A stretch of DNA of 64,000 nucleotides, taken from NCBI GenBank assembly GCA_000955795.1, contig JYOB01000016.1:335908-399907 (forward strand), in the 5' to 3' direction. Below are positions 13,920 to 27,321 of this stretch, in pieces; position 1 is the first letter of the stretch, and every line of letters starts with the position of its first letter. Below the pieces are notes generated by a model that saw nothing but the letters and a program-made list of their open reading frames with translations, had not been told where the DNA came from and searched no databases. Both the position numbers and the translations under genes were made by a program. This DNA comes from Burkholderiaceae bacterium 26 (GTDB taxonomy: Bacteria > Pseudomonadota > Gammaproteobacteria > Burkholderiales > Burkholderiaceae).

Positions 13920-13942
13920 GCGCCCCAAGGCACAACTTTTGC

Positions 13943-13970
13943 GCAGAGAACGGTGAACCACATTCTCTGC
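13943..13970 (+). promoter_or_regulatory. Inverted repeat abutting a start codon
   Basis: A perfect repeat, GCAGAGAA (13943-13950) and TTCTCTGC (13963-13970), ends one base before the ATG of the AI-2E-type transporter and takes the place of a normal Shine-Dalgarno. It could be an operator or a leader stem controlling translation. Confidence 0.45.
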
Positions 13971-13971
13971 C

Positions 13972-15228
13972 ATGCCAGCCGAACTCACTCCTCCTCCCAC
14001 GCAGCCGGAACCGCTGCACGGCAGCCTTCTCGACGGGCTGCGGCAGCCGGCCTGGCGCGTGGCGATGGTGCTGGTGGCCATTGGCGGCACCCTGGTATTT
14101 CTGCAATGGGCACGCGCGTTTCTGGTGCCGTTCACCCTTGGCGTGGTGCTCGCGTTTGCGCTGAACCCGGTGGTCGTGTGGTTGCGGCGCTGCTATGTGC
14201 CGCGCCCCATTGCAGCGGCCATCGTGGTGCTCGGCCTGTGGATTGCCGGTGCAGTGCTGGTCTTCGGGATGCAAGACGGCGTCTCTGCCATGGCGGACCG
14301 GTTGCCCGTGGCGGCGGAGCGCATGGCAGAAGCCATCGACGGTATGCGTGGGCATATGGGCGGCGCGTTCGACAAGATGCGCGATGTGACTGTCGCACTC
14401 GAACATGCCGCCGAAGGCGTGCAGGGCAAGCCGGCGCCAGCGCTTGCCAAACGGTCGCCTGCAGTCGCTGCTCCTGCCGCGCAGCCGGTGCTGCCGCTGC
14501 GCGAGTTTCTATGGACGGGTTCCGCCAACCTCTTCGCGCTGGTGGGGCAACTCGTCGTGGTCTCGTTTCTCGTCTACTTCCTGCTCGCTTCGGGCCAGGC
14601 ACTCAAGCGTAAATGGGTGCGCGCGGTGGGCAACACGTTGAGCGAAAAGAAGCGCGCGGTGCGCATGATGGCGGTCATCGGCACACAGATCCAGTATTCG
14701 TTGCTGGTGCTGTTTGCAACCAACATCGTGTTGGGCGTACTCACCACGGTGGCCTTTGTGCTGCTCGGCATGGAAGACGCGGCGGTCTGGGGTCTGGCGA
14801 CGGCCGTTCTGCACTTCGTGCCGTATCTCGGTTCGGTGGTGATTGCCGTGGCCAGCGGCATCGGTGCGTACCTGCAGATGGGCGCGTGGCCAGATGCGCT
14901 TGTCGTGGCAGGCGTCACGCTGCTGCTGGCCACGCTGGTCGGCACGCTGCTCGTGACGTGGCTGCAGAGCCGGGCGTCCAAGCTCGATCCGTGCGTGGTC
15001 TACATCGGCCTTCTGCTGTGGGGCTGGCTGTGGGGCCTGTGGGGCTTGCTGCTTGGGACGTCGATCACGGCGATGATCAAGGTGGTATGTGATCACGTCG
15101 ATCGGCTGCGTCCGCTCGGTACGCTGCTCGGCACCACTGACGCGCCGGCAGGTGTGTCGCAGCGGTTGCTGGACCGACTGCGCGGCCGCCCGACGCGTCG
15201 CTCGGAACGCGTGCAGCTTCCTCGCTGA
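13972..15228 (+). CDS. AI-2E family transporter (PerM/YdiK-like)
   Basis: A 418-residue inner-membrane protein of the AI-2 exporter-like superfamily. It has the usual pattern: paired N-terminal helices (LVAIGGTLVFLQWARAFLVPFTLGVV begins the first), a periplasmic/amphipathic middle section, and a C-terminal helix bundle with the conserved VPYLGSVV motif. Members have been linked to autoinducer-2 or ion export, but most are uncharacterised. No ribosome site is visible because an inverted repeat occupies the place where it should be. It stands alone between the sensor kinase and a probable sigma-54-dependent operon. Confidence 0.88.
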   Translation: MPAELTPPPTQPEPLHGSLLDGLRQPAWRVAMVLVAIGGTLVFLQWARAFLVPFTLGVVLAFALNPVVVWLRRCYVPRPIAAAIVVLGLWIAGAVLVFGMQDGVSAMADRLPVAAERMAEAIDGMRGHMGGAFDKMRDVTVALEHAAEGVQGKPAPALAKRSPAVAAPAAQPVLPLREFLWTGSANLFALVGQLVVVSFLVYFLLASGQALKRKWVRAVGNTLSEKKRAVRMMAVIGTQIQYSLLVLFATNIVLGVLTTVAFVLLGMEDAAVWGLATAVLHFVPYLGSVVIAVASGIGAYLQMGAWPDALVVAGVTLLLATLVGTLLVTWLQSRASKLDPCVVYIGLLLWGWLWGLWGLLLGTSITAMIKVVCDHVDRLRPLGTLLGTTDAPAGVSQRLLDRLRGRPTRRSERVQLPR

Positions 15229-15398: not shown

Positions 15399-15414
15399 GG
15401 GCACGGTGGTTGCG
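15399..15414 (+). promoter_or_regulatory. Candidate sigma-54 promoter for the 15454-17579 operon
   Basis: GGGCACGGTGGTTGCG matches TGGCACGNNNNTTGCW at 10 of 12 defined positions with exact GG-N10-GC spacing (15400-15401 and 15412-15413). It lies 40 bases upstream of the first start codon, in the correct orientation. Confidence 0.55.
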
Positions 15415-15453
15415 GTGCGCAAGGCAACCAGATCACGTCCGCAGGAGGGCACC

Positions 15454-15885
15454 ATGAACCGACCACGCCCCACCTTACGCGGCTCGCATGAGCGCGGCGA
15501 ACGGCCGGCAGGTACGACACCGCCGCGTGCGCCAAGCGCGGGCCGAAACGCTGAAAACATCGACAAGATGCTCGGCAAGCCGGAGCAGGGCAAGCCAGAG
15601 TCGGGCTCGGCAGATCGGTTGCCGCACGAGCGCGACCAACACCTTGAAGAGCAACGTTCCGCCCCGCGCAGCAATGTCGAGCAGGCCGCGCGCGACATCG
15701 AAAGCGGGCAGCTTGACACCGATCTGCACAACACCCCCGGCGTAGAGCGCGTCGTGCGCGAGCGCCATGCGGCCAACCGCGACGACAGCGATCGCCAAGT
15801 CGCCAATCGCAGCGCAGACGACCTTGCTGACAAACGAGGCCAGACGGGCGGCCCCTCGCACAGCCGCGATGAGCACAAAGGTTGA
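15454..15885 (+). CDS. Hypothetical hydrophilic, probably disordered protein
   Basis: A 143-residue protein of unrecognised family. It is rich in R, E, D, H, Q and G, with almost no hydrophobic stretches, so it should be largely unfolded and soluble. I chose the ATG at 15454 (MNRPRPTLRG) because GGAGGG lies 5 nt upstream. A candidate sigma-54 promoter sits 40 bases above. It ends 8 bases before a glycosyltransferase, so it probably heads an operon with that gene and the PAP2 phosphatase. Similar charged small proteins are often stress-related; that is inference. Confidence 0.7.
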   Translation: MNRPRPTLRGSHERGERPAGTTPPRAPSAGRNAENIDKMLGKPEQGKPESGSADRLPHERDQHLEEQRSAPRSNVEQAARDIESGQLDTDLHNTPGVERVVRERHAANRDDSDRQVANRSADDLADKRGQTGGPSHSRDEHKG

Positions 15886-15892
15886 TCGGCCC

Positions 15893-17065
15893 ATGCGCAT
15901 TGCCTATGTGACCGAAACCTGGCCGCCGGAACTTAACGGCGTATCGCTTACTGCCGCGCGCACCGTGGCATTTTTGCAGGCGCGCGGGCATGACGTGATG
16001 GTCGTGCGCCCGCGCCAGCGTGCCATCGATGCCGGCCAGCCTGCGTTGGCGGACGACGCGCTCCGCGTTCCTGGCGTGCCGATTCCGCTGTATCCGGATT
16101 TGCGTATGGGTCTGCCCGCGCGCAGGCGGTTGCTTCGTGCGTGGGGCGCCTACCGACCCGATCTTGTGCATGTCGCCACGGAAGGACCGCTCGGCTGGTC
16201 GGCCATTCGGGCTGCGCGGCACCTTGGTGTGCCCGTGACTTCGGATTTCAGAACGCGCTTTGACGAGTACGGCCGCCACTACGCGTGGGAAGGTGCCGTA
16301 ACGCTGGTGCGCGCCTATCTGCGCTCGTTTCACAATCGCGCCGATCGCACCTTCGTTCCCACGCGCGAACTGCAGCGGCAGTTAAGCGACCTCGATTTCG
16401 AGCGCCTGACGGTCAGTACGCGCGGCGTGGACGCACACAGGTTCACGCCGCAAGCCCGCAGTCACGCATTGCGTGCGCAATGGGGGGCTGACGCCGACAC
16501 GCCGGTCGTGCTCGCGGTGGGGCGTCTTGCGTTGGAAAAGAACCTGGGTGTCGCGCTGGATGCGTTTGATGCCGTGCGCGAGCGGGTGCCCGAGGCACGC
16601 CTCGTCATAGTGGGCGATGGTCCACAACGCAACGCACTGCGCCGTCGTTGCCCCGGTGCCATCTTTGCAGGCACGCAGCACGGCGAGGCGTTGGCCGCGC
16701 ACTATGCATCGGCAGACGTGTTTCTCTTTCCAAGCGTGACCGAGACCTTCGGCAACGTGGTGGTCGAGGCGATGGCCAGTGGCTTGCCCGTGGTGGCGTT
16801 CGATACCGCTGCGGCCGGCATGCACGTGCGGAGCCACGAGAACGGTTGGCTCGCGCCCGTCGGCGATGCCGCGTTGTTCACGCAGGCTGCCGTCACACTT
16901 GCCACCGATGCCGGCTTGCGGCAGCGCCTGGGGCAAGCGGCGCGGTTGACAGCGCAGGCGCTGGATTGGCCGCGCGTGCTCGAACGTTTTGAAGCCGCGC
17001 TCATCGCCGTGCACGACGCTGCCACCAACGGGGAGGCCTACCATGGCGACCCACGCCTGGCCTGA
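15893..17065 (+). CDS. GT4-family glycosyltransferase
   Basis: A 390-residue retaining glycosyltransferase with two Rossmann-like domains. The N-terminus MRIAYVTETWPPELNGV with a Gly-containing loop is typical of the branch that glycosylates lipids such as diacylglycerol or inositol lipids. The donor-binding half has AVGRLALEKN and the E-x7-E element SVTETFGNVVVEAMASG. I use the ATG at 15893 with AAAGG upstream; ATG 15869 is an alternative that would overlap the previous gene. It overlaps the PAP2 gene by 23 bases. A lipid glycosylation or dephosphorylation pathway is plausible from this pairing. Confidence 0.85.
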   Translation: MRIAYVTETWPPELNGVSLTAARTVAFLQARGHDVMVVRPRQRAIDAGQPALADDALRVPGVPIPLYPDLRMGLPARRRLLRAWGAYRPDLVHVATEGPLGWSAIRAARHLGVPVTSDFRTRFDEYGRHYAWEGAVTLVRAYLRSFHNRADRTFVPTRELQRQLSDLDFERLTVSTRGVDAHRFTPQARSHALRAQWGADADTPVVLAVGRLALEKNLGVALDAFDAVRERVPEARLVIVGDGPQRNALRRRCPGAIFAGTQHGEALAAHYASADVFLFPSVTETFGNVVVEAMASGLPVVAFDTAAAGMHVRSHENGWLAPVGDAALFTQAAVTLATDAGLRQRLGQAARLTAQALDWPRVLERFEAALIAVHDAATNGEAYHGDPRLA

Positions 17066-17579
17066 CTGGAAGCGCTGGCGCGAGCGCGATCGGCAGCTCG
17101 CCGTGGCGCTCAATCACGTGGCCGGCGATGCGTCGGCCATGCGCTTCTATCGTGGTGTCAGTCGCCTTGGCGACGGCATGCTTTGGTATGCGTTGATGGC
17201 GGCGTTGCCCGTGGTAGGCGGTGACACCGGCTGGGAATGCGCCAAGCAGATGGGGCTCACGGGGCTGCTCTCGCTGGTCATCTACATCCTGCTCAAGCGC
17301 GGCGTGTGCCGGCCCCGGCCTTACCTCTCTTGTGAAGAGATCCACCTGTGCGGGCGCGTGCTCGATCAGTTCAGCTTTCCATCGGGCCATACGCTGCATG
17401 CGGTGTCGTTCAGCATTGTGATGGCGGCGTATTACCCGCGCATGGCGCTGGCGCTCGTGCCGTTTACGCTCATGGTGGCCGTCTCTCGCGTCGTGCTCGG
17501 CCTGCACTATCCGAGCGACGTGCTTGCGGGTGCCGGGCTCGGGATGCTGATCGGCGGATTGTCGGTGTGGTTGTTCTAG
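17043..17579 (+). CDS. PAP2-family membrane phosphatase
   Basis: A 178-residue integral membrane lipid phosphatase. All three signature motifs are present: KRGVCRPRP (motif 1), FPSGHT (motif 2) and SRVVLGLHYPSD (motif 3), with the catalytic His in motif 3 and the acid/base His in motif 2. It has about five membrane helices. Such enzymes dephosphorylate phosphatidic acid, undecaprenyl-PP or similar lipids on the periplasmic side. GGGGAGG precedes the ATG by 6 nt. Overlap with the glycosyltransferase gene indicates coupled translation. Confidence 0.9.
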   Translation: MATHAWPDWKRWRERDRQLAVALNHVAGDASAMRFYRGVSRLGDGMLWYALMAALPVVGGDTGWECAKQMGLTGLLSLVIYILLKRGVCRPRPYLSCEEIHLCGRVLDQFSFPSGHTLHAVSFSIVMAAYYPRMALALVPFTLMVAVSRVVLGLHYPSDVLAGAGLGMLIGGLSVWLF

Positions 17580-17589
17580 CGCTTGCGGT

Positions 17590-18384
17590 TTAGTACGACG
17601 TTTGCGCGTGCCCGGCGACGGTGGTTTCCGGGCCGCCCATCCAGGCTTGGGCCAGCACCTGCGCAAAGCCGTTCTTGGTAACGGGCGTGCGCGTCTCCAG
17701 GCATGCAGCGAGCAATTCCTGCCAATGGCGAATGACGTCGGGATGCGCCGCGTCGGCCGGATGCAGGCCCAGACGCACCAGTGGCGCCTCCGCGTGTCGC
17801 TGCGCCAGCCAGCGCAGGTAGTACCGCGACACCAGCCGGCGCGCTGGCGAGCGCACGCTGTACGTCAGGCATGGCGCCTTGAGCGGGCGCCGCGGGTGCA
17901 GCAAGTAGAAGCGTTGCAGCGTGGTCGTATAGCGCAGGGGCAGGCCGTCGAGCGCCTCCCAGGTTGGCCGGTTCATCAGCCACGCCGGGGCGACAAAGCC
18001 ATGCAGCGGCCAGCCGTTGGCGGCAAACCAGGCAGCTCCAGCTTCAATGCGCGCGCGCGCCGCCGCCAGCGGAATGGCAGAGAATTCGCCTTCGCCCGCG
18101 GTATAGCGGGTGCGGATCAGTTGGTCGATCACGCCGCCGGGGGGCTGGTCGTCCAGGTGCGCATAGCCGTGCAGGACAAGCTCATCGCCCTCGGCCAGGC
18201 ATTCGCTCATGACGCGGCAGAAACGCTCACTGCTGCGTGCGGTCGGGCCGCGATAGAAGTTCGGAATGACCAGCAGCGACTTGGGTACGCGCGCCACCTC
18301 ATCCAACGCAGAAAGCAACACCTTGCACGCAGGCCATGTGGCGGGCGTGACATCGTGCATGGCAAGAATGAGATGGCGCGACAT
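17590..18384 (-). CDS. DUF2334-type polysaccharide deacetylase family protein
   Basis: A 264-residue protein with the NodB-like fold. Visible elements: LAMHDVTP near the N-terminus (catalytic/metal Asp), LVLHGYAHLDD (metal-binding His pair), FVAPAWLMN and LGLHPADAAH (late catalytic His). This is the DUF2334 branch, which removes N-acetyl groups from sugars or glycolipids; no signal peptide is seen, so it probably acts in the cytoplasm. It lies 22 bases after the glycosyltransferase at 18406-19620 and may share its transcript, starting from rpoN. The substrate is unknown. Confidence 0.82.
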   Translation of the reverse strand: MSRHLILAMHDVTPATWPACKVLLSALDEVARVPKSLLVIPNFYRGPTARSSERFCRVMSECLAEGDELVLHGYAHLDDQPPGGVIDQLIRTRYTAGEGEFSAIPLAAARARIEAGAAWFAANGWPLHGFVAPAWLMNRPTWEALDGLPLRYTTTLQRFYLLHPRRPLKAPCLTYSVRSPARRLVSRYYLRWLAQRHAEAPLVRLGLHPADAAHPDVIRHWQELLAACLETRTPVTKNGFAQVLAQAWMGGPETTVAGHAQTSY

Positions 18385-18405
18385 GATGAACAGGATCGAT
18401 CAGGG

Positions 18406-19620
18406 CTACCGGCCGCGCGATGCACGCACGCGCTCGCGAGCCGGTTGTGGAAGTGTCTCCGCAGCGGCGCTGGTTTGCCGGCCGAGCAGCGCGCGGTAGC
18501 GTTGCAGAAGTTGCGGCAGGATGGCCTGCCAGTCGTACTGCATGGCATGCCGGCGCGCCGCGTGCGCCAGTGCGACCGGATCGCGCTGGCGCAGCGCCTG
18601 CAGTGCCTGCGCGAAATCGTCAGCGCGGCAACGCGGCACCGCATAGCCGACACGCTCGTTCACCAGTTCGCTCAAGCCGCCGGCCGCGCAGGTGACGACC
18701 GGCACGCCGCTGGCCATCGCTTCCAATGCGACGAGGCCGAATGTTTCCTGGTCGCCCGCGTGCACAAACGCGTCGGCACTCGCCATGGCCGCAGCTAGGT
18801 GCTGCGTGTCGCCTTCATAAGCGAGCGCGCGCACATGCTTGCCGCGTGGGGGTGTGGGACCCGAACCAATGGTGACGAGCACGCTGCCGTCGTCGAGCTT
18901 GTCCACCGCGTCGCACAGCACGTGCAGATTCTTCTCGGGTGCGTAGCGGCCGACGTAAAGCAGCACACGTGCATCGCGCGGCAGGTCGAGCTGTTCGCGC
19001 CAGCGCAGCGAGCGCCGCGCGGGGTGGAACAGGCGCGTGTCCACGCCCAACGGCTGCAGTTCAATGCGTTGCACGCCAAGGTCAGCCACTTTCTGCGCGA
19101 TGTAGCGGCTGGGCACGAACACTGTATCGAAGTGCGGATATAGCTTGCGGGCGTACGCGGCAGCGGCCAGCTCGGCAGGCGGGCCGCCCAGGCGGCGGAA
19201 GAACGCGGGCAGATCGGAGTGATAGAACGCCGCCACCGGCACCTGCAGTTGCGCGCCGGCATGCACCGCCGCCCACGACAGCCGGTACGGGTCACCCGCT
19301 TCAATCAGATCGGGCGACAGCGCACACAGTGCCCGCATGGCTGGCCCGGTCCGCAAGGGAATGCGATAACCATGCGACAGCGGCAGCGGCACGCCCGGCA
19401 CCACGGCGATCTCATTGGTAGCGTCGTCCGCCGTGCCGGGCACGACCAACGTGTGCCGCCATTGCGTGGAGCGCAGGAAGTCGTGCTTGGCGCGCAGGTA
19501 GCGTTTGACCCCACCGCTTTCCGCCGCCCAGAACATCGTCACGTCGGCCAGATGGAATGACGCGTTCGTCGCATCGTCGATGCGGCGTGGCGGGTAATGA
19601 TCGGTGGGCAGCTTGCGCAC
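18406..19620 (-). CDS. GT4-family glycosyltransferase
   Basis: A 404-residue glycosyltransferase of the GT-B fold. The acceptor half starts ADVTMFWAAESGGVKRYL; the donor half has YVGRYAPEKNL and DQETFGLVALEAMASG, the E-x7-E element. I chose a GTG start at 19620 because AGGAG lies 5 nt upstream; it begins 25 bases after the rpoN stop. It is followed by a DUF2334 deacetylase, giving rpoN-glycosyltransferase-deacetylase in one direction. GlcNAc transfer followed by deacetylation is the usual logic of such pairs, as an inference. It differs from the plus-strand GT4 gene at 15893. Confidence 0.86.
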   Translation of the reverse strand: MRKLPTDHYPPRRIDDATNASFHLADVTMFWAAESGGVKRYLRAKHDFLRSTQWRHTLVVPGTADDATNEIAVVPGVPLPLSHGYRIPLRTGPAMRALCALSPDLIEAGDPYRLSWAAVHAGAQLQVPVAAFYHSDLPAFFRRLGGPPAELAAAAYARKLYPHFDTVFVPSRYIAQKVADLGVQRIELQPLGVDTRLFHPARRSLRWREQLDLPRDARVLLYVGRYAPEKNLHVLCDAVDKLDDGSVLVTIGSGPTPPRGKHVRALAYEGDTQHLAAAMASADAFVHAGDQETFGLVALEAMASGVPVVTCAAGGLSELVNERVGYAVPRCRADDFAQALQALRQRDPVALAHAARRHAMQYDWQAILPQLLQRYRALLGRQTSAAAETLPQPARERVRASRGR

Positions 19621-19645
19621 GGGGCTCCTGTCGGTGGCGGGCGCG

Positions 19646-21148
19646 TCAGACTTGGCGCCGCATTTCCGCCGGCGCAATGCGCATCAGCCCGCGATATTTG
19701 GCCACTGTGCGGCGCGCAACGATCACGCCCTGCTCGGCCAGCATCTTGGCGAGCGACACATCGGAGAGCGGCGCATCCGAATCTTCGGCTTCGATCATCT
19801 CCTTGAGCAACGCCCGCACCGAGGCCGCCGAGCATGCGCCGCCGGTGTCGGTTGCCAGTTGGCGCGAGAAGAAGTACTTGAACTCGAAGATGCCGCGCGG
19901 TGTGGCCATGTACTTGTTGCCCGTGGCGCGCGAGATGGTCGATTCGTGCAGGCCCAGCTCTTCGGCCACGTCACGCAGCACCAGCGGCTTCATGGCCACC
20001 TCGCCGTATTCCAGGAAGTGCTTCTGGTGCGCGACGATCGCCTCGGCCACGCGCTGGATGGTGGCGAAGCGCTGCTGCGCGTTGCGGATCAGCCAGCGTG
20101 CTTCCTGCAGTTGGTGTGCCAGCGGCGTGCGATTGTGGCCGCGCGTCTGGGCAAACAACTCCGCGTAGACCTTGTTGACGCGCGCGCACGGCGCCACCGC
20201 CGGGTTCGTCAGGGCAATCCATTTGCCCTTGATCTTGGTGACGATCACATCCGGCACGATGTAGCCCGCATGGGCCTGCGAAAAGCGCAGCCCCGGGCGC
20301 GGGTCCAGCATGCGGATCAGTGCGCAGGCGTCGCGCAGCTCCTCTTCGGTACAGGCGAGCGCGCGACGCATCTGCGTGAGTTCGCGCTTGGCCAATCGGG
20401 GCAGGTGGCTGCGCACGATGTCTTGCGCGATCTCCTGGATGCGTTCTTCGGCCTCGGTGTCGGCGGGGCGCGCTTCGATCTGCAGGCGCAGGCACTCCGC
20501 CAGATCACGCGCCGCCACGCCCGGCGGGTCCAGGCTCTGTACGAGCGCCAGCGCAATCTGCATCTCCTTCTCGGTGGGCGGCGGCTCCACCGGCGCCAGC
20601 GGCATCAGCTCGGAGAGCAACTGACGCAGGTAACCGTCGTCGTCCAGCGCTTCAATCAGCGTCTGTGCGAGGAGGCAGTCGCGCTCTGACAGGCGATAGC
20701 TGCGCAACTCCTGATGCAGATGTTCGCGCAGGCTCGGCGTGGAGTGCACCCATTCGCCGATGTCGCTGTCTTCACCATCGCCATGGTGGGCGCCACCGTG
20801 GCTGTAATAGGTGCTGAAGTCGGTGGGGAAATCTTCCGATGCGGCCAGCGTCGGGTCGGTTTCGATGGCGCTCGTGGTGGTTTCCAGCGGAGCGTCGTCT
20901 GCAGGCGTGTGATCGGCTGCGGCGCCTTCCCGATCGACAGAAATGGCAATGTCGCCGGTGCGCGCGGCATCAGGCTGCGCACCTGCTTCTTGCTCGACTT
21001 CTTCGAGGAACGGATTGCTTGCGAGCGCTTCTTGCATTTCCTGCGCAAATTCGGTTGCAGACAACTGCAGCAGCTTGACGGATTGCTGCAGTCGCGGCGT
21101 TAGCGCGAGATGCTGCTTCGCACGCATTTCCAGAGCGGCCTTGACCAT
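19646..21148 (-). CDS. rpoN: RNA polymerase sigma-54 factor (probably second copy, RpoN2)
   Basis: Directs RNA polymerase to -24/-12 promoters and needs an AAA+ activator. The 500-residue protein has region I (residues 1-50, Q/L rich, RAKQHLALTPRLQQSVKLLQLS), an acidic linker (about 55-125), the core-binding domain and the C-terminal DNA-binding part with the RpoN box ARRTVAKYRG. AAAGGAGG precedes the ATG. Ralstonia-type genomes carry rpoN1 with ptsN genes on the main chromosome; here ptsN neighbours are absent and two activators are close by, so this is likely the accessory copy. A sigma-54-like promoter sits 61 bases upstream, suggesting self-activation. Confidence 0.93.
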   Translation of the reverse strand: MVKAALEMRAKQHLALTPRLQQSVKLLQLSATEFAQEMQEALASNPFLEEVEQEAGAQPDAARTGDIAISVDREGAAADHTPADDAPLETTTSAIETDPTLAASEDFPTDFSTYYSHGGAHHGDGEDSDIGEWVHSTPSLREHLHQELRSYRLSERDCLLAQTLIEALDDDGYLRQLLSELMPLAPVEPPPTEKEMQIALALVQSLDPPGVAARDLAECLRLQIEARPADTEAEERIQEIAQDIVRSHLPRLAKRELTQMRRALACTEEELRDACALIRMLDPRPGLRFSQAHAGYIVPDVIVTKIKGKWIALTNPAVAPCARVNKVYAELFAQTRGHNRTPLAHQLQEARWLIRNAQQRFATIQRVAEAIVAHQKHFLEYGEVAMKPLVLRDVAEELGLHESTISRATGNKYMATPRGIFEFKYFFSRQLATDTGGACSAASVRALLKEMIEAEDSDAPLSDVSLAKMLAEQGVIVARRTVAKYRGLMRIAPAEMRRQV

Positions 21149-21208
21149 TCGCCTTGCCTCCTTTGGTGAGTGGGCGTCGACATTTCCGTCGACCGGTCAC
21201 CGCATCGA

Positions 21209-21224
21209 TGCAAAGGGTATGCCA
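21209..21224 (-). promoter_or_regulatory. Candidate sigma-54 promoter of rpoN
   Basis: Read on the minus strand, TGGCATACCCTTTGCA matches TGGCACGNNNNTTGCW at 10 of 12 positions with exact GG-N10-GC spacing, 61 bases before the rpoN start. The same strand then carries the glycosyltransferase and deacetylase genes. Confidence 0.55.
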
Positions 21225-21377
21225 TGTCAACAAAGCCAGTCGCCACAAGGCTTTACGGGCGGCTGGCACGCCGTTTCTACATGGTCATGTCGTTTTTATA
21301 TGCCCATTGTTGCCGGCACATGACAGCGCCAGCGGCGGTTGCGGGCTGCGTGCGCGGGTGCAGATGGGTGGCACCGC

Positions 21378-21393
21378 AGGTACATGCGTTGCT
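21378..21393 (+). promoter_or_regulatory. Candidate sigma-54 promoter for the exported protein
   Basis: AGGTACATGCGTTGCT matches the -24/-12 consensus at 9 of 12 positions with correct spacing, 77 bases upstream of the start at 21470. The gap 21149-21469 contains this, the rpoN promoter candidate and a GTCGAC-N6-GTCGAC repeat, but no convincing gene. Confidence 0.42.
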
Positions 21394-21469
21394 GCGACGA
21401 AGGCGGGAGACGCGCCGCAGTGCGCTTCCATCGCCTTCTAATCGAGCATCACATCCCAGGAGAAACCAC

Positions 21470-21877
21470 ATGCGAACACGTTTCCTGACCGCTGCCCTCG
21501 CCAGCGCCATCTTCGGGCTTGGCATCGGCACGGCCGTCGCCCAGACGACGACCGCACCGGTCGACAACCAGGAATCCAGCAACCCCACCAAGGCGCCGGG
21601 CAAGCGCACCGACCCGCCGTCTTCGACTGCCGACCGCACGGCCAATACAGCGATGCCCGGCAGCGAGGCGGCCCCCGCCGCAGGGAGCGGCAACGACACC
21701 AGCAAGCCGATGCACAAGAAGTATCGCCATCACAAGAAATCGAAATCGAATTCGACCGTGCCGGGCGGTACCAACAGCGCGGGCGACATGTCGCACTCGG
21801 GCGTGCAGGCGGGGGGCAATGACGCCGCAACGACCACCGGGAATTCCTACCCCGGTAGCTCAAAGCCAGGCCAGTAA
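21470..21877 (+). CDS. Exported low-complexity protein
   Basis: A 135-residue protein with a clear Sec signal peptide (MRTRFLTAALASAIFGLGIG, cleavage near AVA|QTT). The mature part is rich in S, T, N, G, P and A, with a basic patch (HKKYRHHKKSKS), and has no recognisable domain. It should be periplasmic or secreted and mostly unfolded. AGGAG lies 10 nt before the ATG. It lies divergent from rpoN with a sigma-54-like promoter upstream. No function can be given; proteins of this type often accompany envelope-stress gene sets. Confidence 0.75.
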   Translation: MRTRFLTAALASAIFGLGIGTAVAQTTTAPVDNQESSNPTKAPGKRTDPPSSTADRTANTAMPGSEAAPAAGSGNDTSKPMHKKYRHHKKSKSNSTVPGGTNSAGDMSHSGVQAGGNDAATTTGNSYPGSSKPGQ

Positions 21878-21899
21878 CGTTGAAAGGGAAGGGCTCGCC

Positions 21900-22046
21900 A
21901 TGCCGATGACACTTACCACCGCCGTCCGCACGGGCCCGCGCGCCCGCGCGGAGACCGAACCCACTCCGCGCCGGCCGACGCCGGAACCGCAGGAGCGCCG
22001 CCGCCATGAGCATCCGGGCGAGCGCGCGCACGCGCATCCGCGCTAG
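21900..22046 (+). CDS. Possible small Pro/Arg-rich protein
   Basis: A 48-residue reading frame (MPMTLTTAVRTGPRARAETE...) starting 20 bases after the exported-protein gene, with GAAAGGGAAGGG upstream as a fair ribosome site. Composition is dominated by R, P, E, H and T. It may be a genuine small protein in the same transcript or chance coding in GC-rich DNA. Confidence 0.35.
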   Translation: MPMTLTTAVRTGPRARAETEPTPRRPTPEPQERRRHEHPGERAHAHPR

Positions 22047-22111
22047 AACGTCAGCGCGGATGCGGCGGGTGCGTCAGGGCCGGGGGGCGTTTGAGCTTGA
22101 AAAGCGCGCGG

Positions 22112-23215
22112 TCAAGCCGCCATGGCGGCGGCTGCGGTGCTTTGATAGAGGTCGAGGCGGTTGTACAGCGTCTTCAGGCTGACGCCGAGCGTCTTGGCGG
22201 CTTGGCGCTTGTCACCATGAAAATGCTCCAGCGTGGCCAGGATCATTGCGCGTTGCGCATCGGCCAGCGTCACGCCCACCGACAGGCTGAGCACACCTTC
22301 CTTGACGGTCGGGCGCGCAGGGCCGCGTGCGGGCGCCAACGGCGCGGCCAGTTCGACGGTTTTCTCGCCGAGGATGTATCCGCGCTGCACGGCATTGCGC
22401 AACTCGCGCACATTGCCGGGCCACGGCTGGCCCCGCAGTGCCGACAGGGCTTGGCGCGAGAACACCTTGTCGGTCTGGTGCGCGGCGTTGAACTGGGCAA
22501 GGAAGTGCAGGGCCAGCTCTTCGATATCGTCTTCGCGATCGCGCAGCGGCGGTACCTGCAGCGGCACCACGGCCAGGCGATACATCAGATCTTCGCGAAA
22601 GGCGCCTTCACTCACCGCTTCCAGCAGGTTGCGGTTGGTGGCCGCGATGATGCGTGCGCGCGTCTGGATGGGCTCAGTGCCGCCCACTCGCATGAATACG
22701 CCGGTCTCCAGTACGCGCAGCAGCTTGACCTGCATCTCGACCGGCATCTCGGTAATTTCATCGAGGAAGATCGTGCCGCCGCAGGCATGTTCGAAATAGC
22801 CGACATGACGCTGGGCCGCGCCAGTAAAGCTGCCCTTCTCGTGGCCGAACAGTTCCGACTCGATCAGGTTGGGCGAGATGGCGCCGCAGTTCACCGCGAT
22901 GAAGGCCTGATCTGCGCGCGGGCTCATGTCGTGCACCGTGCGTGCAATCAACTCCTTGCCCGTACCCGATTCACCCATGATGAGCACCGTGGCCAGCGTG
23001 CCTGACACCTTGCCGATCTGGTCGTACAGCGCACGCATCACGGGCGAGCGGCCGTAGAGGTGACCGAAATCCGGCTCGGCGATCGGTTGGGCAGGGGATG
23101 TTTCGGCGTCAGACGGCACGCTTTCGGTGTCGTCAAAGTCGGCCAGGGCGGGGGGATAGCGCAGGCGCCCGATGGTCACTGCGCGGTCGTCGGCGAAGGC
23201 TTCGCTCAAGGACAT
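22112..23215 (-). CDS. Sigma-54-dependent activator without receiver domain
   Basis: A 367-residue bacterial enhancer-binding protein. It has a short unrecognised N-terminus (1-50), an AAA+ domain (about 55-285, Walker A GESGTGKE, Walker B GGTIFLDE, sensor-type arginines in [14 protein letters not shown]) and a Fis-type helix-turn-helix at the end ([16 protein letters not shown]). The sigma-54 contact loop reads GSFTGA instead of the usual GAFTGA. With no receiver or ligand domain it may be constitutively active or controlled by a partner. GAGGGAG precedes the ATG. It lies head to head with a second, receiver-bearing activator whose central domain is very similar. Confidence 0.9.
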
Positions 23216-23656
23216 GGCTCCCTCGTGGTTGGTCGCGACGGGGACGTCCTGGCGAGCGGCTGCATCTTCAGCGATGCAGTCTTCGGAAGGCAGGGTACGT
23301 CGTCATCCCGTCACATTGTGTTGAAAAGTTGAGCCATTATCAGGGCCGCCCAAGTGCGTTGTATGTCGGGCATGCGCTGACGTTTCTTCCATCCTGTCGG
23401 CCAAACGCTGACAAGAAACGGGCCTGAGACGCAGATGCCGCGCGGGTTTCACATTTGTCATGCGGCGTAAGGTGTCCATTTCGGCCCGCAGGTGGCGAAG
23501 CGCGGACCTTCTCAACTATGCTGACTCCTGCGTAGTACCAGTGCCCACCCTGGAGTGATGTATTCGATCCATTTCTTGCATGCGTGCGTGTAAAAATTAC
23601 CGACACCCGCGTTGACGACGCGGGCTGAGGCGCGTGATGGCGGAGGTTGTATTGGA
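23216..23656. other. Divergent intergenic region between two sigma-54 activators
   Basis: The 540-base gap (23216-23755) contains no convincing gene. It has a run of moderately AT-rich segments, the sigma-54-like site at 23657, and should hold the upstream binding sites of one or both activators. I could not recognise an obvious dyad by eye. Confidence 0.4.
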
Positions 23657-23672
23657 TGGAATACTTTTTGCA
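23657..23672 (+). promoter_or_regulatory. Candidate sigma-54 promoter of the response regulator
   Basis: TGGAATACTTTTTGCA has exact GG-N10-GC spacing (23658-23659, 23670-23671), a T-rich spacer and a perfect TTGCA -12 box; 9 of 12 positions match. It lies 84 bases upstream of the start. Confidence 0.5.
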
Positions 23673-23755
23673 CCTGCCGCCGGTCCTCTAGTCGAGCGGG
23701 CCGTTGTGCCCTGCATGACCGCCGGCACATAACCGGCTCCTCCAACCAAATCGAG

Positions 23756-25162
23756 ATGCCACATATCCTGATTGTCGAAGACGATGCCAACGCGCGCGCC
23801 GCTCTAGGTGAGCTGGTGGGCGCCGAAGGCTTCACCACCGCGCTGGCCGGGTCGCTGCGCGATGCGCGCATTCAGATGTCGCGTCACAGCCCCGATGCCG
23901 TGCTGATCGACCTTGTCCTGCCCGACGGCAACGGCATGGATCTGATGGAAGACATCGCGCCGCACTCCGGCACCGAGATCATCGTCATGACGGGCCACGC
24001 CAGCGTGGAAACTGCCGTCGAGGCCCTGCGCATGGGCGCGGCCGACTACCTGGTCAAGCCTGTCAATTTCCAACGTTTGAAATCCGTACTGGCGCGCATC
24101 CCGCGCCCGGGCGATCTGAAAGCCGAGATTGGCAACCTGCGTGGTGAGCTGCGCCGCCTGGGGCTCTTCGGCCAGATGCTCGGCAACTCGACCGTGATGC
24201 AGACGCTGTATGACCAGGTCAGCCGCGTGGCGCCCACCGAGGCGACCGTGCTGCTGATTGGCGAATCGGGCACCGGCAAGGAACTGGCCGCGCAGACCAT
24301 CCACGACCTCAGTCTGCGTCGCAAGCAGCCGTTTCTGCCGGTCAACTGCGGTGCCATTTCGCCCAACCTGATCGAGTCGGAAATGTTCGGCCACGAGCGC
24401 GGCAGCTTTACCGGCGCCGACCGCCAGCACAAGGGCTATTTCGAACGCGCCAATGGCGGCACGCTGTTCCTCGATGAAATTACCGAGATGCCGATCGAGC
24501 TGCAGGTGAAACTGCTGCGTGTGCTGGAAACCGGCGTGTTCATGCGCGTGGGCACCAACCGCGAGATCGACTCCGATGTGCGCGTGATTGCCGCCACCAA
24601 CCGCGACCCGGAAGAGGCCGTGGCCGACGGCAAGCTGCGCGCCGACCTGTATCACCGCCTGAACGTGTTTCCGTTGCAATTGCCGCCGCTGCGCGAGCGC
24701 GGCAAGGATGTCGAGCTGCTGGCTCAACATTTCCTCGATCAGCTCAACGCGCAGAGCAATACCAAGAAGGCATTCCTGCCACCGGCCATGGACACGCTGC
24801 GCGGTTATCACTGGCCGGGCAACGTGCGTGAACTGCGCAATTACGTGCAACGCGCATACATCCTGTCGGACGACGCCGGCATCGATACGGCCAATGTGCC
24901 GCTGCAGGTGTCGAGCACGCAGGTCTCGTCTGGTTCCACACTGACGATTTCGGTTGGCACCTCACTGGCGAGCGCCGACAAGAAGATCATTCTTGCCACG
25001 CTGGAACAGTGCGGTGGCGTGAAAAAGCGCGCGGCTGAACTGCTCGGTATCAGCCTCAAGACGCTCTACAACCGGCTGGAGGAATACGGCAACAGCAACG
25101 CCGACGACGGCGGCGACGGCAACAGCGCGGGCTCCGGCCGCGCGCATGCCACCGAGGCATAA
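23756..25162 (+). CDS. NtrC-family response regulator, sigma-54 activator
   Basis: A 468-residue activator: receiver domain (1-120, acidic pocket EDD, phospho-acceptor D52 in VLIDLVLPDGNG, Lys in YLVKP), AAA+ domain (about 140-375, [22 protein letters not shown] loop, R finger region LRADLYHRL), and a C-terminal Fis helix-turn-helix ([16 protein letters not shown]). I use the ATG at 23756 because the receiver begins MPHILIVEDD. No kinase is adjacent, so it is an orphan; the hybrid kinase at 11.5 kb is a candidate partner. Its own promoter looks sigma-54 dependent, and a sigma-54-like site precedes the next operon. Confidence 0.93.
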   Translation: MPHILIVEDDANARAALGELVGAEGFTTALAGSLRDARIQMSRHSPDAVLIDLVLPDGNGMDLMEDIAPHSGTEIIVMTGHASVETAVEALRMGAADYLVKPVNFQRLKSVLARIPRPGDLKAEIGNLRGELRRLGLFGQMLGNSTVMQTLYDQVSRVAPTEATVLLIGESGTGKELAAQTIHDLSLRRKQPFLPVNCGAISPNLIESEMFGHERGSFTGADRQHKGYFERANGGTLFLDEITEMPIELQVKLLRVLETGVFMRVGTNREIDSDVRVIAATNRDPEEAVADGKLRADLYHRLNVFPLQLPPLRERGKDVELLAQHFLDQLNAQSNTKKAFLPPAMDTLRGYHWPGNVRELRNYVQRAYILSDDAGIDTANVPLQVSSTQVSSGSTLTISVGTSLASADKKIILATLEQCGGVKKRAAELLGISLKTLYNRLEEYGNSNADDGGDGNSAGSGRAHATEA

Positions 25163-25177
25163 CCCGAACCCCTGGCG

Positions 25178-25193
25178 CGGTACGCGGCTTGCT
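25178..25193 (+). promoter_or_regulatory. Candidate sigma-54 promoter of the DUF1328 operon
   Basis: CGGTACGCGGCTTGCT matches TGGCACGNNNNTTGCW at 10 of 12 positions with exact spacing, 60 bases upstream of the DUF1328 start and just past the activator gene. Confidence 0.58.
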
Positions 25194-25252
25194 GAACCGG
25201 TGGGGTATCCGCCCCATGGCGGCAAGCTCACTCAACTGCACAGGAGGTCACC

Positions 25253-25420
25253 ATGCTGCGTTACGCAGTCGTCTTTTTCATCATCGCCCTGATTGCGGCC
25301 GTGCTCGGGTTTGGCGGCATCGCTGCCGGCGCAGCGAGCATCGCCAAGATCCTGTTCATGATTTTCGTGGTGCTGTTCGTGGTCAGCCTGATCTGGGGCC
25401 TGGTCGCGGGCAGGGGATGA
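25253..25420 (+). CDS. DUF1328 small membrane protein
   Basis: A 55-residue protein made almost entirely of two hydrophobic helices ([20 protein letters not shown] and [19 protein letters not shown]) joined by the conserved [12 protein letters not shown] loop that defines the DUF1328/YtjA family. CAGGAGG lies 6 nt before the ATG, a very strong ribosome site. It sits in the inner membrane; members are induced by stress in several proteobacteria but have no known biochemical role. It probably heads an operon with the DUF883 protein 69 bases downstream, under a sigma-54-like promoter. Confidence 0.88.
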
Positions 25421-25489
25421 CGCCGGGATGAAGCGCGCAGCTTCCAGCCCGGCTCTCACGATGCCACGAAACTCCAGGAGCGCTGACTG

Positions 25490-25795
25490 ATGGAACCGTC
25501 TCAAACCAACCCGTTTCCCAAATCCGATGCCAACGGCAACCTCATCCGCGGCGACGTTGCGCAAGCCGCCGAGCGTGTGAAGGCGACCACAGCACAGGCC
25601 ATCGACCGCACTGCAGACGCAGCGGCCACCGCACTTGACGAGGCGGCTGCCAAGCGCGATCAATGGCGTGCCTCGCAGCAGCGTCTGATGAGCGATGCGG
25701 CGGACTGCATGCGATCGCATCCGCTTGCGACGATTGGCCTGGCGTTCGGCGCAGGCTTTCTGATCAGCCGGTTGCTGGGCAGCGGTAACGACTGA
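25490..25795 (+). CDS. DUF883/ElaB-type membrane-anchored protein
   Basis: A 101-residue protein with a soluble Ala-rich helical N-terminal part (about 20-75, RVKATTAQAIDRTADAAATA) and one C-terminal membrane helix ending in a glycine-rich segment (HPLATIGLAFGAGFLISRLL). This is the ElaB/YqjD/YgaM plan: tail-anchored proteins that bind stationary-phase ribosomes in E. coli, although the role here is not known. AGGAG precedes the ATG. A paralogue lies on the opposite strand beyond the YihY gene, at 26942-27268. Confidence 0.82.
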   Translation: MEPSQTNPFPKSDANGNLIRGDVAQAAERVKATTAQAIDRTADAAATALDEAAAKRDQWRASQQRLMSDAADCMRSHPLATIGLAFGAGFLISRLLGSGND

Positions 25796-25876
25796 GGGCG
25801 CAAGCCCTCAAGATTCCTCGCAGCCACGGTCGCGCTTGCGCGCGTGCCGTGCGCTGACTAGGCTCAAGGTCGAGGC

Positions 25877-25892
25877 CGGCACAGCGCTGGCC
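25877..25892 (+). promoter_or_regulatory. Weak sigma-54-like site upstream of yihY
   Basis: CGGCACAGCGCTGGCC keeps GG-N10-GC spacing but matches only 8 of 12 positions. It is listed because it lies 24 bases upstream of a gene in the same block; it may be chance. Confidence 0.25.
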
Positions 25893-25915
25893 GCATCGCC
25901 TTGCAAGGAACCTCC

Positions 25916-26923
25916 ATGCGCCCGGCTGCCTTCTTCGACCGCGACCTGCTCAAGCGCTCTGCCCAAGTGCTGATGGGGGCGGTGCGGCAGTGGTCTGCGC
26001 ACCGCGCGGCGAGCAAGGGCGCGGCGCTGTCGTTCTACACGTTGTTCTCGATGGCGCCGGTGCTGGTGCTGGTCATTTCCATTGCCGGTTTGTTCTTTGG
26101 CGAACAGGCGGCGCGTGGCGAAATCTTTGGGCAGATCCAAGGTCTGGTGGGGGCGCAGGGCGCCTCTGCGGTGGAAGCCGTGCTCGCCGCTACCCGGCGC
26201 TCGGGCAGCGGCCTTTTCGCTGCAGTCACGGCCGTCGCGCTATTGCTGGTGGGGGCCACCACGGCTTTCTCCGAACTCAAGGACAGCCTGGACGAACTGT
26301 GGGAGGTGCCGCCGCGCCAGCAGACAGGGCTCTGGGGCTTGCTGCGTTCGCGCCTGCTGTCGTTCAGCCTGATCCTGGTGCTGGCGTTTCTGCTGCTGGT
26401 GTCGCTCACCATCAACGCGGCGCTGGCCGTGGTGGAGCGCTTTTGGGGGGCGTTGTGGGCGGGCTCCACTTCGGGCATGGCGCTGCTGGTGGCGCAGGTG
26501 CTGTCGTCGGCGTTTTCGTTTGCTGTCGTATCGCTGTTGTTCGGCACCATTTTCAAAATGCTGCCCGAAACGCGCGTGGCCTGGCGAGACGTTGCTCTGG
26601 GCGCCATCGTTACGGCGCTGCTCTTCACGCTGGGCAAACACCTCATCGGTCTGTATCTCGGCAACAGCGCTGTGGCGTCGTCTTACGGGGCGGCGGGTTC
26701 GGTGGTGGCGCTGATGCTGTGGATTTACTACTCTGCCCAGATTTTCTTCTTTGGCGCGCTGGTCACGCGGCAATACGCGCTTCGATTCGGCAGCCGCCAG
26801 TACGAAGCGTCAGGTCAGACCGGTGCGGCCGCGCAGGCGGCGTTGCTCAACCCGGCGCTGGCGGCAAATCTCTCCAATGGTGGGACAGGGGCAACCCGCC
26901 CCTCCGCGCGCAACAGCGGCTAA
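25916..26923 (+). CDS. YihY/BrkB-family inner-membrane protein
   Basis: A 335-residue membrane protein of the family once misnamed ribonuclease BN. Characteristic features are the N-terminal HRAASKGAALSFYTLFSMAP motif, six membrane segments, GATTAFSELKDSLDELWEV, and the C-terminal SYGAAGSVVALMLWIYYSAQIFFFGA-type helix (positions about 265-290). Function is unresolved; transport of lipids or anions has been suggested. AAGGA precedes the ATG. It lies with DUF1328 and two DUF883 genes in a cluster of small stress-type envelope proteins. Confidence 0.9.
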   Translation: MRPAAFFDRDLLKRSAQVLMGAVRQWSAHRAASKGAALSFYTLFSMAPVLVLVISIAGLFFGEQAARGEIFGQIQGLVGAQGASAVEAVLAATRRSGSGLFAAVTAVALLLVGATTAFSELKDSLDELWEVPPRQQTGLWGLLRSRLLSFSLILVLAFLLLVSLTINAALAVVERFWGALWAGSTSGMALLVAQVLSSAFSFAVVSLLFGTIFKMLPETRVAWRDVALGAIVTALLFTLGKHLIGLYLGNSAVASSYGAAGSVVALMLWIYYSAQIFFFGALVTRQYALRFGSRQYEASGQTGAAAQAALLNPALAANLSNGGTGATRPSARNSG

Positions 26924-26941
26924 GCCTAGGAAGACGCCAAC

Positions 26942-27268
26942 TCAATCCCGCGTCAACTGCTCCAGCAGCATTCCGGCCACGAACGCCAAGCCGATCGTAA
27001 TGACCGGATGCTGACGCACGGACCCGCTTGCCTGTTCCGAGACATTTGCGTGCAGGTTCTTCAACTGTTCGGTGCGTTTGTCGAACTGTGTGAGCGCCGT
27101 GGAAAGAACGCTTGCCAGCCGGTCGATGCCTTCTGCCGTGGCATCTTTGACGCGCTGCGCGGTGTGATCGATCTGCGGACGCAGCGTGGTGACCGTCGCA
27201 CCGTTGGCGCCGTTCGTACCGTTGGTTCCATTGCTGCTGGTGGGCGGCTTGGGGGTCAGTTCGGTCAT
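26942..27268 (-). CDS. DUF883-like membrane-anchored protein
   Basis: A 108-residue paralogue of the gene at 25490: low-complexity N-terminus with repeated NGTNG units (11-25), helical middle (RVKDATAEGIDRLASVLSTA) and a C-terminal membrane segment (HPVITIGLAFVAGMLLEQL). GGAGG lies 7 nt before the ATG. A sigma-54-like site precedes it at 27306-27321. It converges with the YihY gene (19 bases apart). It is probably tail-anchored in the inner membrane, function unknown. Confidence 0.8.
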   Translation of the reverse strand: MTELTPKPPTSSNGTNGTNGANGATVTTLRPQIDHTAQRVKDATAEGIDRLASVLSTALTQFDKRTEQLKNLHANVSEQASGSVRQHPVITIGLAFVAGMLLEQLTRD

Positions 27269-27305
27269 GTCGGCCTCCTGAGTTGAGTCGTGTCAGCCAA
27301 TCACA

Positions 27306-27321
27306 AGCAACCGCCATGCCC
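27306..27321 (-). promoter_or_regulatory. Candidate sigma-54 promoter of the second DUF883 gene
   Basis: On the minus strand, GGGCATGGCGGTTGCT matches the -24/-12 consensus at 10 of 12 positions with exact spacing, 38 bases before the start codon. Confidence 0.52.

What the first reader, a model, noticed from the sequence alone, without database searches (positions are those of the whole stretch)
15399..27321. A probable sigma-54 regulon packed around a second rpoN
Seen: six -24/-12-like sites with exact GG-N10-GC spacing and 9-10 of 12 matches to TGGCACGNNNNTTGCW lie 38-84 bases upstream of genes in the right orientation (15399+, 21209-, 21378+, 23657+, 25178+, 27306-), plus one weaker (25877). 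They precede a hypothetical-glycosyltransferase-PAP2 operon, rpoN itself, an exported protein, an NtrC-type regulator, DUF1328-DUF883 and a second DUF883 gene. Established: such promoters need RpoN and an AAA+ activator; both, twice over for activators, are in the same 12 kb. Inference: an envelope/lipid-modifying system with its own sigma factor, activators and targets, possibly portable as a unit.
Basis: partly seen in the sequence, partly recalled or inferred. Interest (0 to 1): 0.78.

Follow-up and report, generated by a model that had tools for sequence, protein, structure and literature searches.

The report
Sigma-54 stress regulon around rpoN2
Next to a spare copy of the nitrogen sigma factor, these bacteria keep a conserved set of sigma-54 switches that in related genera sit in front of classic stress-survival genes, which suggests that this puzzling second sigma factor and its two partner activators run a stress response rather than nitrogen use.

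Summary
Confirmed and extended. All six sites are present and share the core GGHAYRNNNNTTGC, found once per 33 kb in this genome. In 16 genomes of the genus, 102 of 110 strict matches fall at these seven positions, the rest at background rate. The weak 25877 site is not conserved.

The island recurs in other Burkholderiaceae (93 sites, 9.2 expected, in 17 loci), where sites precede RpoS-type stress genes: otsA, BON, DJ-1/PfpI, CsbD. In the window's genome four further sites (cfa, hemerythrin, DUF3175, RsbRD-type kinase) are conserved. Best reading: a sigma-54 stress regulon gated by a paired EBP1/EBP2. A published rpoN2 mutant with low katE fits. Behind rpoN2 lies a glucosaminyl-phosphatidylglycerol-like enzyme pair.

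Not shown: that RpoN2 rather than RpoN1 reads the targets; Cupriavidus-like genomes with one rpoN keep the activators and similar sites. 'Portable unit' is not supported. Two of the seven promoters, perhaps three, were already predicted in print for R. solanacearum; my searches found no description of the stress regulon.

The parts
13928..13943 (+). sigma-54 site AGGCACAACTTTTGCG, 28 bp before the AI-2E transporter ATG (not in the finding)
   Evidence: strict match in 11 of 12 genus genomes that have the gene; weakest footprint of the seven
15399..15414 (+). sigma-54 site GGGCACGGTGGTTGCG before hyp1-GT4a-PAP2
   Evidence: 14 of 15; core 100% conserved in those 14, in a diverging region
21209..21224 (-). 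sigma-54 site TGGCATACCCTTTGCA before rpoN2-GT4b-DUF2334
   Evidence: 16 of 16; also predicted in print for R. solanacearum
21378..21393 (+). sigma-54 site AGGTACATGCGTTGCT before a small exported protein
   Evidence: 15 of 16 at this position
23657..23672 (+). sigma-54 site TGGAATACTTTTTGCA before EBP2
   Evidence: 16 of 16
25178..25193 (+). sigma-54 site CGGTACGCGGCTTGCT before DUF1328-DUF883a
   Evidence: 15 of 15
27306..27321 (-). sigma-54 site GGGCATGGCGGTTGCT before the DUF883-like gene
   Evidence: 15 of 15
13972..15228 (+). AI-2E family transporter
   Evidence: PF01594
15454..15885 (+). hyp1, 143 aa hydrophilic protein of unknown family
   Evidence: no NCBIfam match
15893..17065 (+). 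GT4a glycosyltransferase, glycolipid-synthase-like
16989..17579 (+). PAP2 phosphatase
   Evidence: PF01569
17590..18384 (-). DUF2334, GlcNAc-PG-deacetylase-like (GpgD-like)
   Evidence: NF053788, 258 bits, cut-off 280
18406..19677 (-). GT4b, GlcN-PG-synthase-like (GpgS-like); the real start is probably near 19550, where the model match begins
   Evidence: NF053787, 408 bits, cut-off 480
19646..21148 (-). rpoN2, second sigma-54 factor
21470..21877 (+). small exported protein
   Evidence: signal peptide judged by eye
22112..23215 (-). EBP1, AAA+ activator without receiver domain, GSFTGA loop
23756..25162 (+). EBP2, NtrC-type response regulator, GSFTGA loop
25253..25420 (+). DUF1328 small membrane protein
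   Evidence: PRK13682 models
25490..25795 (+). DUF883a
   Evidence: DUF883_C below the curated cut-off
26942..27268 (-). DUF883b, DUF883-like by eye only
   Evidence: no Pfam match

Best explanation
The block is the nucleus of a sigma-54-dependent stress-survival regulon of Burkholderiaceae. Its activators are a paired set: EBP1, which has no receiver domain, and EBP2, an NtrC-type response regulator. Under starvation, osmotic or membrane stress, phosphorylated EBP2, with EBP1, opens sigma-54 polymerase at weak-consensus -24/-12 promoters (VGG-N10-GC) in front of protective genes: small membrane and periplasmic proteins, lipid-modifying enzymes, and in sister genera trehalose synthesis, BON proteins, DJ-1/PfpI and CsbD. 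rpoN2 has a full-consensus promoter (TGG-N10-GC) and probably enters as a second tier, made when RpoN1 switches it on, adding sigma-54 capacity for the targets. Shown here: the sites, their conservation, their spacing to genes, and the content of the downstream genes. Inferred: the inducing signals, which activator acts where, and that RpoN2 is the sigma factor used.
For: Seven conserved sites in 16 genus genomes. The same island in other genera: 93 sites in 17 loci against 9.2 expected and 10 for the read-backwards pattern; 190 against 20 in 40 loci. Genes after sites are enriched in stress families: of 129 scanned, 16 OtsA, 16 BON, 6 DJ-1/PfpI, 4 CsbD, 4 DUF883, 4 DUF3175, 3 DUF4142 (ten of the named families' members checked one by one); of 129 site-less control genes from the same loci, 5 BON, 3 DUF883, and no OtsA, DJ-1 or CsbD among the 25 of 94 families shown, whose smallest count is 2. 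Annotated B. pyrrocinia locus: 6 of 7 sites are 39-131 bp before annotated genes, none inside a gene. Further conserved sites in the window's genome: cfa 16/16, DUF3175 13/13, hemerythrin 13/13 close orthologues, RsbRD-type kinase 8/11. Published: R. solanacearum rpoN2 is silent in rich medium, induced in minimal medium, and needs rpoN1; a B. pseudomallei rpoN2 mutant has normal nitrogen use but low katE, with an RpoN box before katE.
Against: No transcript data. In this genome otsA has no strict site in front of it. The genes in the window block are mostly of unknown function; the stress reading rests on relatives and on four other own-genome sites that I picked by eye from 48. The cfa site lies 134-148 bp before the start, in a region conserved beyond the site. 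Family loci share ancestry, so gene counts are not independent. Cupriavidus-like genomes with one rpoN keep EBP1, EBP2 and similar sites, so RpoN2 is not essential to the scheme. Three of 13 rpoN2 loci with a genome rate show only 2 sites each. In 4 of 20 family loci fetched around an rpoN-like gene (L076-L078 of genus g12, and L080, a third rpoN) no strict site precedes that gene, nor in B. pyrrocinia. BON and DUF883 also occur among control genes. An earlier study, cited in the katE paper, assigned katE to RpoS.
Confidence: 0.7

Rival explanations
1. The promoters are real, but the single ancestral RpoN (RpoN1) reads them all; RpoN2 is a redundant or antagonistic paralogue that happens to sit inside the regulon.
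For: Cupriavidus-like g3 genomes have one rpoN match (all 21 listed), yet the nine with EBP2 keep similar sites; four have one before a BON gene and one before a DUF4142 gene. Published rpoN2 mutants of R. solanacearum have no phenotype in the tests used, and an antagonist role was proposed there.
Against: rpoN2 is kept in 16 of 16 genus genomes and in many genera. The published katE effect of an rpoN2 mutant points to a positive role. rpoN2 promoters have T before GG in 15 of 15 family cases, the other sites in 15 of 125, so the two promoter classes differ.
Confidence: 0.3
2. The block is mainly a membrane-lipid remodelling system (GlcN-PG, glycolipids, cyclopropane fatty acids) with its own regulators; stress genes in other genera are later recruits.
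For: GT4b and DUF2334 score close to the GlcN-PG synthase and deacetylase models; GT4a resembles glycolipid synthases; PAP2; cfa site 16/16.
Against: In the 40 family loci DUF2334 has no tblastn match and GT4b only weak ones (24-31%); what recurs there is rpoN2, EBP1, EBP2 and stress genes. DUF3175, hemerythrin and the RsbRD kinase are not lipid genes.
Confidence: 0.15
3. The matches are chance GC-rich sequence plus conserved intergenic DNA, not promoters.
For: The loose consensus is not enriched, the tight core was chosen after seeing the sites, and genome-wide it barely exceeds its read-backwards control (170 against 129).
Against: Island-like conservation with exact spacing in 16 genomes, recurrence in other genera with ten-fold excess over genome rate and over the read-backwards control, placement before starts in an annotated record and at conserved distances.
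Confidence: 0.03

Closest known systems
RpoN1/RpoN2 of Ralstonia solanacearum GMI1000 (Ray 2015, PMC4371752; Lundgren 2015, PMC4676750)
   Same: Apparently the orthologous locus: rpoN2 (RSp1671) with two EBPs (Rsp1667, Rsp1668) carrying GSFTGA; predicted sigma-54 promoters before rpoN2, RSp1674 and Rsp1668; rpoN2 expression needs rpoN1. The printed RSp1674 site is letter for letter the hyp1 site of L047, so RSp1674 is taken as hyp1; which EBP is Rsp1668 I cannot tell.
   Different: The passages read report no phenotype for rpoN2 and no stress regulon. Besides rpoN2 and RSp1674 no other gene of this block is recognisable in the 40-gene table of Ray.
RpoN2 of Burkholderia pseudomallei and katE (Diep 2015, PMC4745423)
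   Same: A second sigma-54 factor that is dispensable for nitrogen use but needed for full catalase E expression, with an RpoN box before katE.
   Different: One stress target only (two amino-acid enzymes also fell); the EBPs and a wider stress set are not mentioned in the abstract and the discussion part that I read.
RpoS general stress regulon of enterobacteria (recalled)
   Same: Content: trehalose synthesis, OsmY-like BON proteins, DUF883/ElaB, DJ-1/PfpI, cfa, katE.
   Different: Here the promoters are -24/-12 and need ATP-driven activators, so the response has an obligatory signal gate.
gpgSDF glucosaminyl-PG pathway of Pseudomonas aeruginosa (Khan 2025, PMC12713373)
   Same: Glycosyltransferase plus deacetylase in one predicted operon; the lipid is reported to rise in stationary phase.
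   Different: Here the pair lies behind rpoN2 under a sigma-54 site; scores fall below NCBI's equivalog cut-offs; a gpgF was not looked for.
Two RpoN factors of Rhodobacter sphaeroides (Poggio 2002, 2006; seen only as cited in PMC4676750 and PMC3162934)
   Same: Paralogous sigma-54 factors with divided duties.
   Different: There the promoter difference is at position -11; a -11 rule was tried here and failed.

Membership tests
sigma-54 (-24/-12) promoters | GG and GC dinucleotides exactly 10 bases apart within a TGGCAC-N5-TTGC-like sequence | tested here: met
   all seven sites match GGHAYRNNNNTTGC; the first T is present at only two of the seven in the window
sigma-54 (-24/-12) promoters | transcription start about 12 bases downstream, dependent on sigma-54 and an activator | not testable with these tools
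   needs transcript-end mapping and mutants
sigma-54 factor (RpoN) | AID, core-binding and DNA-binding domains | tested here: met
   PF00309, PF04963, PF04552 all over cut-off
sigma-54 factor (RpoN) | RpoN box ARRTVAKYRE (motif recalled) | tested here: inconclusive
   ARRTVAKYRG here and ARRTVAKYR followed by G, H or R in the six RpoN2 rows aligned; the three RpoN1 rows keep the E
sigma-54 activators (bEBP) | sigma-54 interaction AAA+ domain with GAFTGA loop and Fis-type HTH | tested here: met
   PF00158 and PF02954 in both; the loop is the GSFTGA variant in both
sigma-54 activators (bEBP) | receiver domain with phospho-acceptor Asp (NtrC type) | tested here: met
   EBP2 has PF00072 and D52 is invariant in 14 aligned sequences; EBP1 has no receiver domain
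general stress regulon | gene content typical of stress survival | tested here: met
   in related genera by Pfam against a control set; in the own genome only for part of the targets
general stress regulon | induction by several unrelated stresses | not testable with these tools
   no expression data held
GlcN-PG pathway (gpgS, gpgD) | NCBIfam equivalog cut-offs NF053787 (480) and NF053788 (280) | tested here: not met
   408 and 258 bits, nearly full length; so called GpgS-like and GpgD-like only

The most novel reading that the evidence does not exclude
Burkholderiaceae, and perhaps Neisseriales (one genome seen), run a general stress response on sigma-54: an activator pair gates RpoS-type genes, and most genera have added a dedicated second sigma-54 factor with relaxed -24 recognition, itself switched on by the nitrogen sigma-54. 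This would be a further architecture beside RpoS, SigB and EcfG-PhyR, and the first broad job for rpoN2 in these bacteria.
Probability: 0.4. Interest if true: 0.8.

Novelty: new variant of a known kind. Interest (0 to 1): 0.62.

Why it matters
rpoN2 of R. solanacearum was left with no phenotype and an 'enigmatic' role after mutants were tested for nitrogen use, metabolism, motility and virulence. The promoter map says where to look instead: stress survival, trehalose and membrane lipids. A stress response gated by sigma-54 activators would differ in kind from RpoS or SigB control, because it cannot fire without an ATP-driven activator, and the island gives a ready list of targets and two candidate regulators to test.

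Tried and rejected
Rejected: (1) Position -11 as the mark of RpoN2 promoters. In this genus the structural genes mostly have G or T after TTGC, while rpoN2 and nearly all EBP2 sites have A; but in other genera 12 of 16 otsA sites have A, 11 of 15 rpoN2 promoters have T, and in nine Cupriavidus-like loci 25 of 32 sites have G or C (my counts). (2) GSFTGA as a mark of RpoN2-coupled activators: EBP2 keeps GSFTGA in the nine g3 loci, whose genomes have one rpoN match, and has GAFTGA in L126 and L127, whose genomes have a second. (3) The 25877 site. (4) An enhancer motif: the palindrome ACATGGTCATGT between rpoN2 and exp is kept in 14 of 16 genomes, but the window has no other exact copy. (5) OtsA as a direct member in this genome: no strict plus-strand site between C1:54645 and the gene at C1:59664.

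The first RpoN alignment had wrong strands for some rows and was redone. The outputs were cut; for the missing alignments were printed again. Some 'EBP1' rows are cross-hits on EBP2 and were not used. For the Pfam count 139 of 179 site-gene pairs passed a filter (score over 30, unique, up to 700 aa), and 129 of the 139 were scanned; I dropped ten by hand: near-duplicates, an alternative start, two EBP1 genes and an ORF antisense to EBP2. Genome rates were taken for 15 genomes I chose, covering 17 of 40 loci. Of 170 own-genome sites 100 were listed; 95 of those lie in sequence I held (8 in the window, 87; one on C10 and four on C11 were not fetched), and 48 site-gene pairs passed the score threshold, some surely false. 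In one search the hyp1 row of L045 was left out. Of the 11 RsbRD-kinase loci three lack a site; one of these, L319, is a partial match whose start was not located.
Full report
What is there. The window is contig C8:335908-399907 of a 5.68 Mb genome, Ralstonia-like by inference from the match of its rpoN2 region to published R. solanacearum genes; no call named it. The genome has two rpoN genes; the one here (19646-21148, minus) is 46% identical to the other. Around it lie two sigma-54 activators, EBP1 and EBP2, and several smaller genes.

Checking the sites. The loose consensus has no power: 145 matches at up to 3 mismatches against 159 in shuffles. All six reported sites share GGHAYRNNNNTTGC. 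That core was written after seeing them, but it is narrow: 170 matches in the genome, 129 for the pattern read backwards.

Footprinting. I fetched the block from 15 other genomes of the genus. Gene order is kept, with losses in the more distant ones. Upstream alignments show the sites as islands of identity, clearest where the surrounding DNA diverges. Of 110 strict matches in 16 stretches (318 kb), 102 are at the seven syntenic positions and 8 elsewhere, close to the 9.5 expected from the genome rate (the sums are mine). Losses: one of 12 AI-2E genes, one of 15 hyp1 genes and one of 16 exp positions lack the site. The seven core columns are fully conserved at six sites (hyp1 without L045) and 95% at the AI-2E site. 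Ranked among 125 placements of the same mask, the sites come 1st (hyp1, EBP2), 3rd (DUF1328), 7th (rpoN2), 9th (exp), 13th (DUF883b) and 26th (AI-2E); the weak BrkB site comes 35th with 88%. The AI-2E footprint is therefore the weakest of the seven, and the upstream regions of rpoN2 and exp are highly conserved as a whole.

Other genera. rpoN2 orthologues at roughly 52-61% identity occur in many genera of the family; 21 listed genomes of genus g3 have only one rpoN match. EBP2 is found at E <= 1e-150 in 75 of 120 family genomes, including nine of g3 at 67-70%. Cupriavidus records match EBP2 at 68-69% and Cupriavidus is reported to lack rpoN2, so g3 is taken as Cupriavidus-like. In 17 loci for which I had whole-genome rates (13 around rpoN2, 4 around EBP2) there are 93 sites against 9.2 expected, and 10 for the read-backwards pattern; three rpoN2 loci (L067, L072, L073) have only 2. 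Cupriavidus-like loci L112 and L113 are also enriched (7 and 6 sites); the other seven of g3 have 1-5. A strict site precedes rpoN2 in 16 of the 20 rpoN-centred loci (in L079 some 300 bp away); it is missing in the three g12 loci and at the third rpoN of G008.

What the sites precede. Genes starting 10-160 bp after sites were called by script and 129 scanned with Pfam: 16 trehalose-phosphate synthases, 16 BON, 15 rpoN2, 6 DJ-1/PfpI, 4 CsbD, 4 DUF883, 4 DUF3175, 3 DUF4142, 3 CBS, 3 DUF1488. A random 129 of 562 site-less genes from the same 40 loci gave 14 activators, 5 BON, 3 DUF883, 3 DUF1488, 2 rpoN, and none of OtsA, DJ-1 or CsbD among the 25 of 94 families listed, the last of which have 2 members. 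The OtsA cases come from six genera (g8, g10, g14, g16, g21, g25). In an annotated Burkholderia pyrrocinia record the rpoN2 region holds PRC-barrel, CBS, DUF1328, DUF3175, a type 1 glutamine amidotransferase-like (PfpI-type) gene and treY, and 6 of 7 sites lie 39-131 bp before annotated genes, none inside one; rpoN2 itself has no strict site there. In Gulbenkiania mobilis, outside the family, the EBP1-EBP2 locus has 8 sites in 21 kb; no genome rate was taken there.

More members in the window's own genome. Of the sites outside the block, four with stress-like downstream genes were tested across the genus: cfa 16 of 16, DUF3175 13 of 13, hemerythrin 13 of 13 close orthologues (a fourteenth, distant copy lacks it), RsbRD-type histidine kinase 8 of 11. 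I chose these four by eye from 48 candidates; others were not tested. The cfa site is unusually far from the start (134-148 bp). otsA of this genome has no strict site before it.

Lipid genes. GT4b and DUF2334, behind rpoN2 in the same direction, match NCBI models for GlcN-PG synthase (408 bits, cut-off 480) and GlcNAc-PG deacetylase (258, cut-off 280). The pathway was worked out in P. aeruginosa in 2025, where the discussion links GlcN-PG to stationary phase and stress (abstract and passages). I call them GpgS-like and GpgD-like only.

Which sigma factor? In the family loci the base before GG is T in 15 of 15 rpoN2 promoters but in 1 of 16 otsA and 14 of 109 other sites; the last group will include chance matches. 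In this genus T is fixed for rpoN2 and EBP2 (16/16 each) and rarer elsewhere (0/11 AI-2E, 5/14 hyp1, 0/15 exp, 1/15 DUF1328, 0/15 DUF883b). With the published need of rpoN1 for rpoN2 expression, this suggests that RpoN1 reads the TGG promoter of rpoN2, and that RpoN2, whose RpoN box ends in G, H or R instead of E in the rows aligned, may read the relaxed ones. Against this, four Cupriavidus-like genomes of g3 have a VGG site before a BON gene. So the sigma assignment stays open.

Literature seen. PMC4371752: passages and one whole section with its table. PMC4676750: passages. PMC4745423: abstract and the first part of the discussion. PMC12713373: abstract and passages. PMC3162934, PMC12316311, PMC12322963 and PMC11722255: passages. 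The other papers in the search listings were not opened. Searches touching a sigma-54 or RpoN2 stress regulon in these bacteria showed none beyond katE in what I saw; the library lacks most subscription journals.

Verdict. The best-supported reading is an EBP1/EBP2-gated sigma-54 stress regulon with rpoN2 as a probable second-tier factor. On re-checking, hyp1 was mended from 14/14 to 14/15, the low rpoN2 loci from 3 of 12 to 3 of 13, and the printed predictions from three to two or three; none of these moves the odds.

Noticed in passing
L187 (G000:C8:287236-299100), sites at 2100(-) and 2191(+): About 47 kb before the window, a kinase with an RsbRD N-terminal domain and a divergent hybrid PAS kinase share back-to-back sigma-54 sites; possible sensors of the same regulon.
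   Followed up: partly
window 21279-21290: Perfect palindrome ACATGGTCATGT, kept in 14 of 16 genus genomes, between the divergent rpoN2 and exp promoters; candidate activator site.
   Followed up: partly
window 23216-23375: The region upstream of EBP1 is strikingly conserved (mean 0.92 over 16 genomes) without a strict sigma-54 site; another promoter or RNA element may lie there.
   Followed up: no
L112-L116, L118-L120: In Cupriavidus-like genomes with one rpoN match EBP1 carries GGFTGA instead of GSFTGA in 8 of 9 loci (one not resolved); possible loss or change of sigma-54 contact.
   Followed up: no
L080 (G008:C1, third rpoN) and L349: One genus genome has a third rpoN (51% identical to rpoN2) with a hemerythrin gene about 0.6 kb away.
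   Followed up: no
window 11502-13919: Hybrid PAS histidine kinase with receiver directly upstream of the AI-2E gene; candidate partner of EBP2, no direct evidence.
   Followed up: no
L294 (Paraburkholderia sabiae plasmid): An EBP2 relative (72%) sits on a plasmid typed as mobilizable, near kinases and a BREX defence cluster.
   Followed up: no
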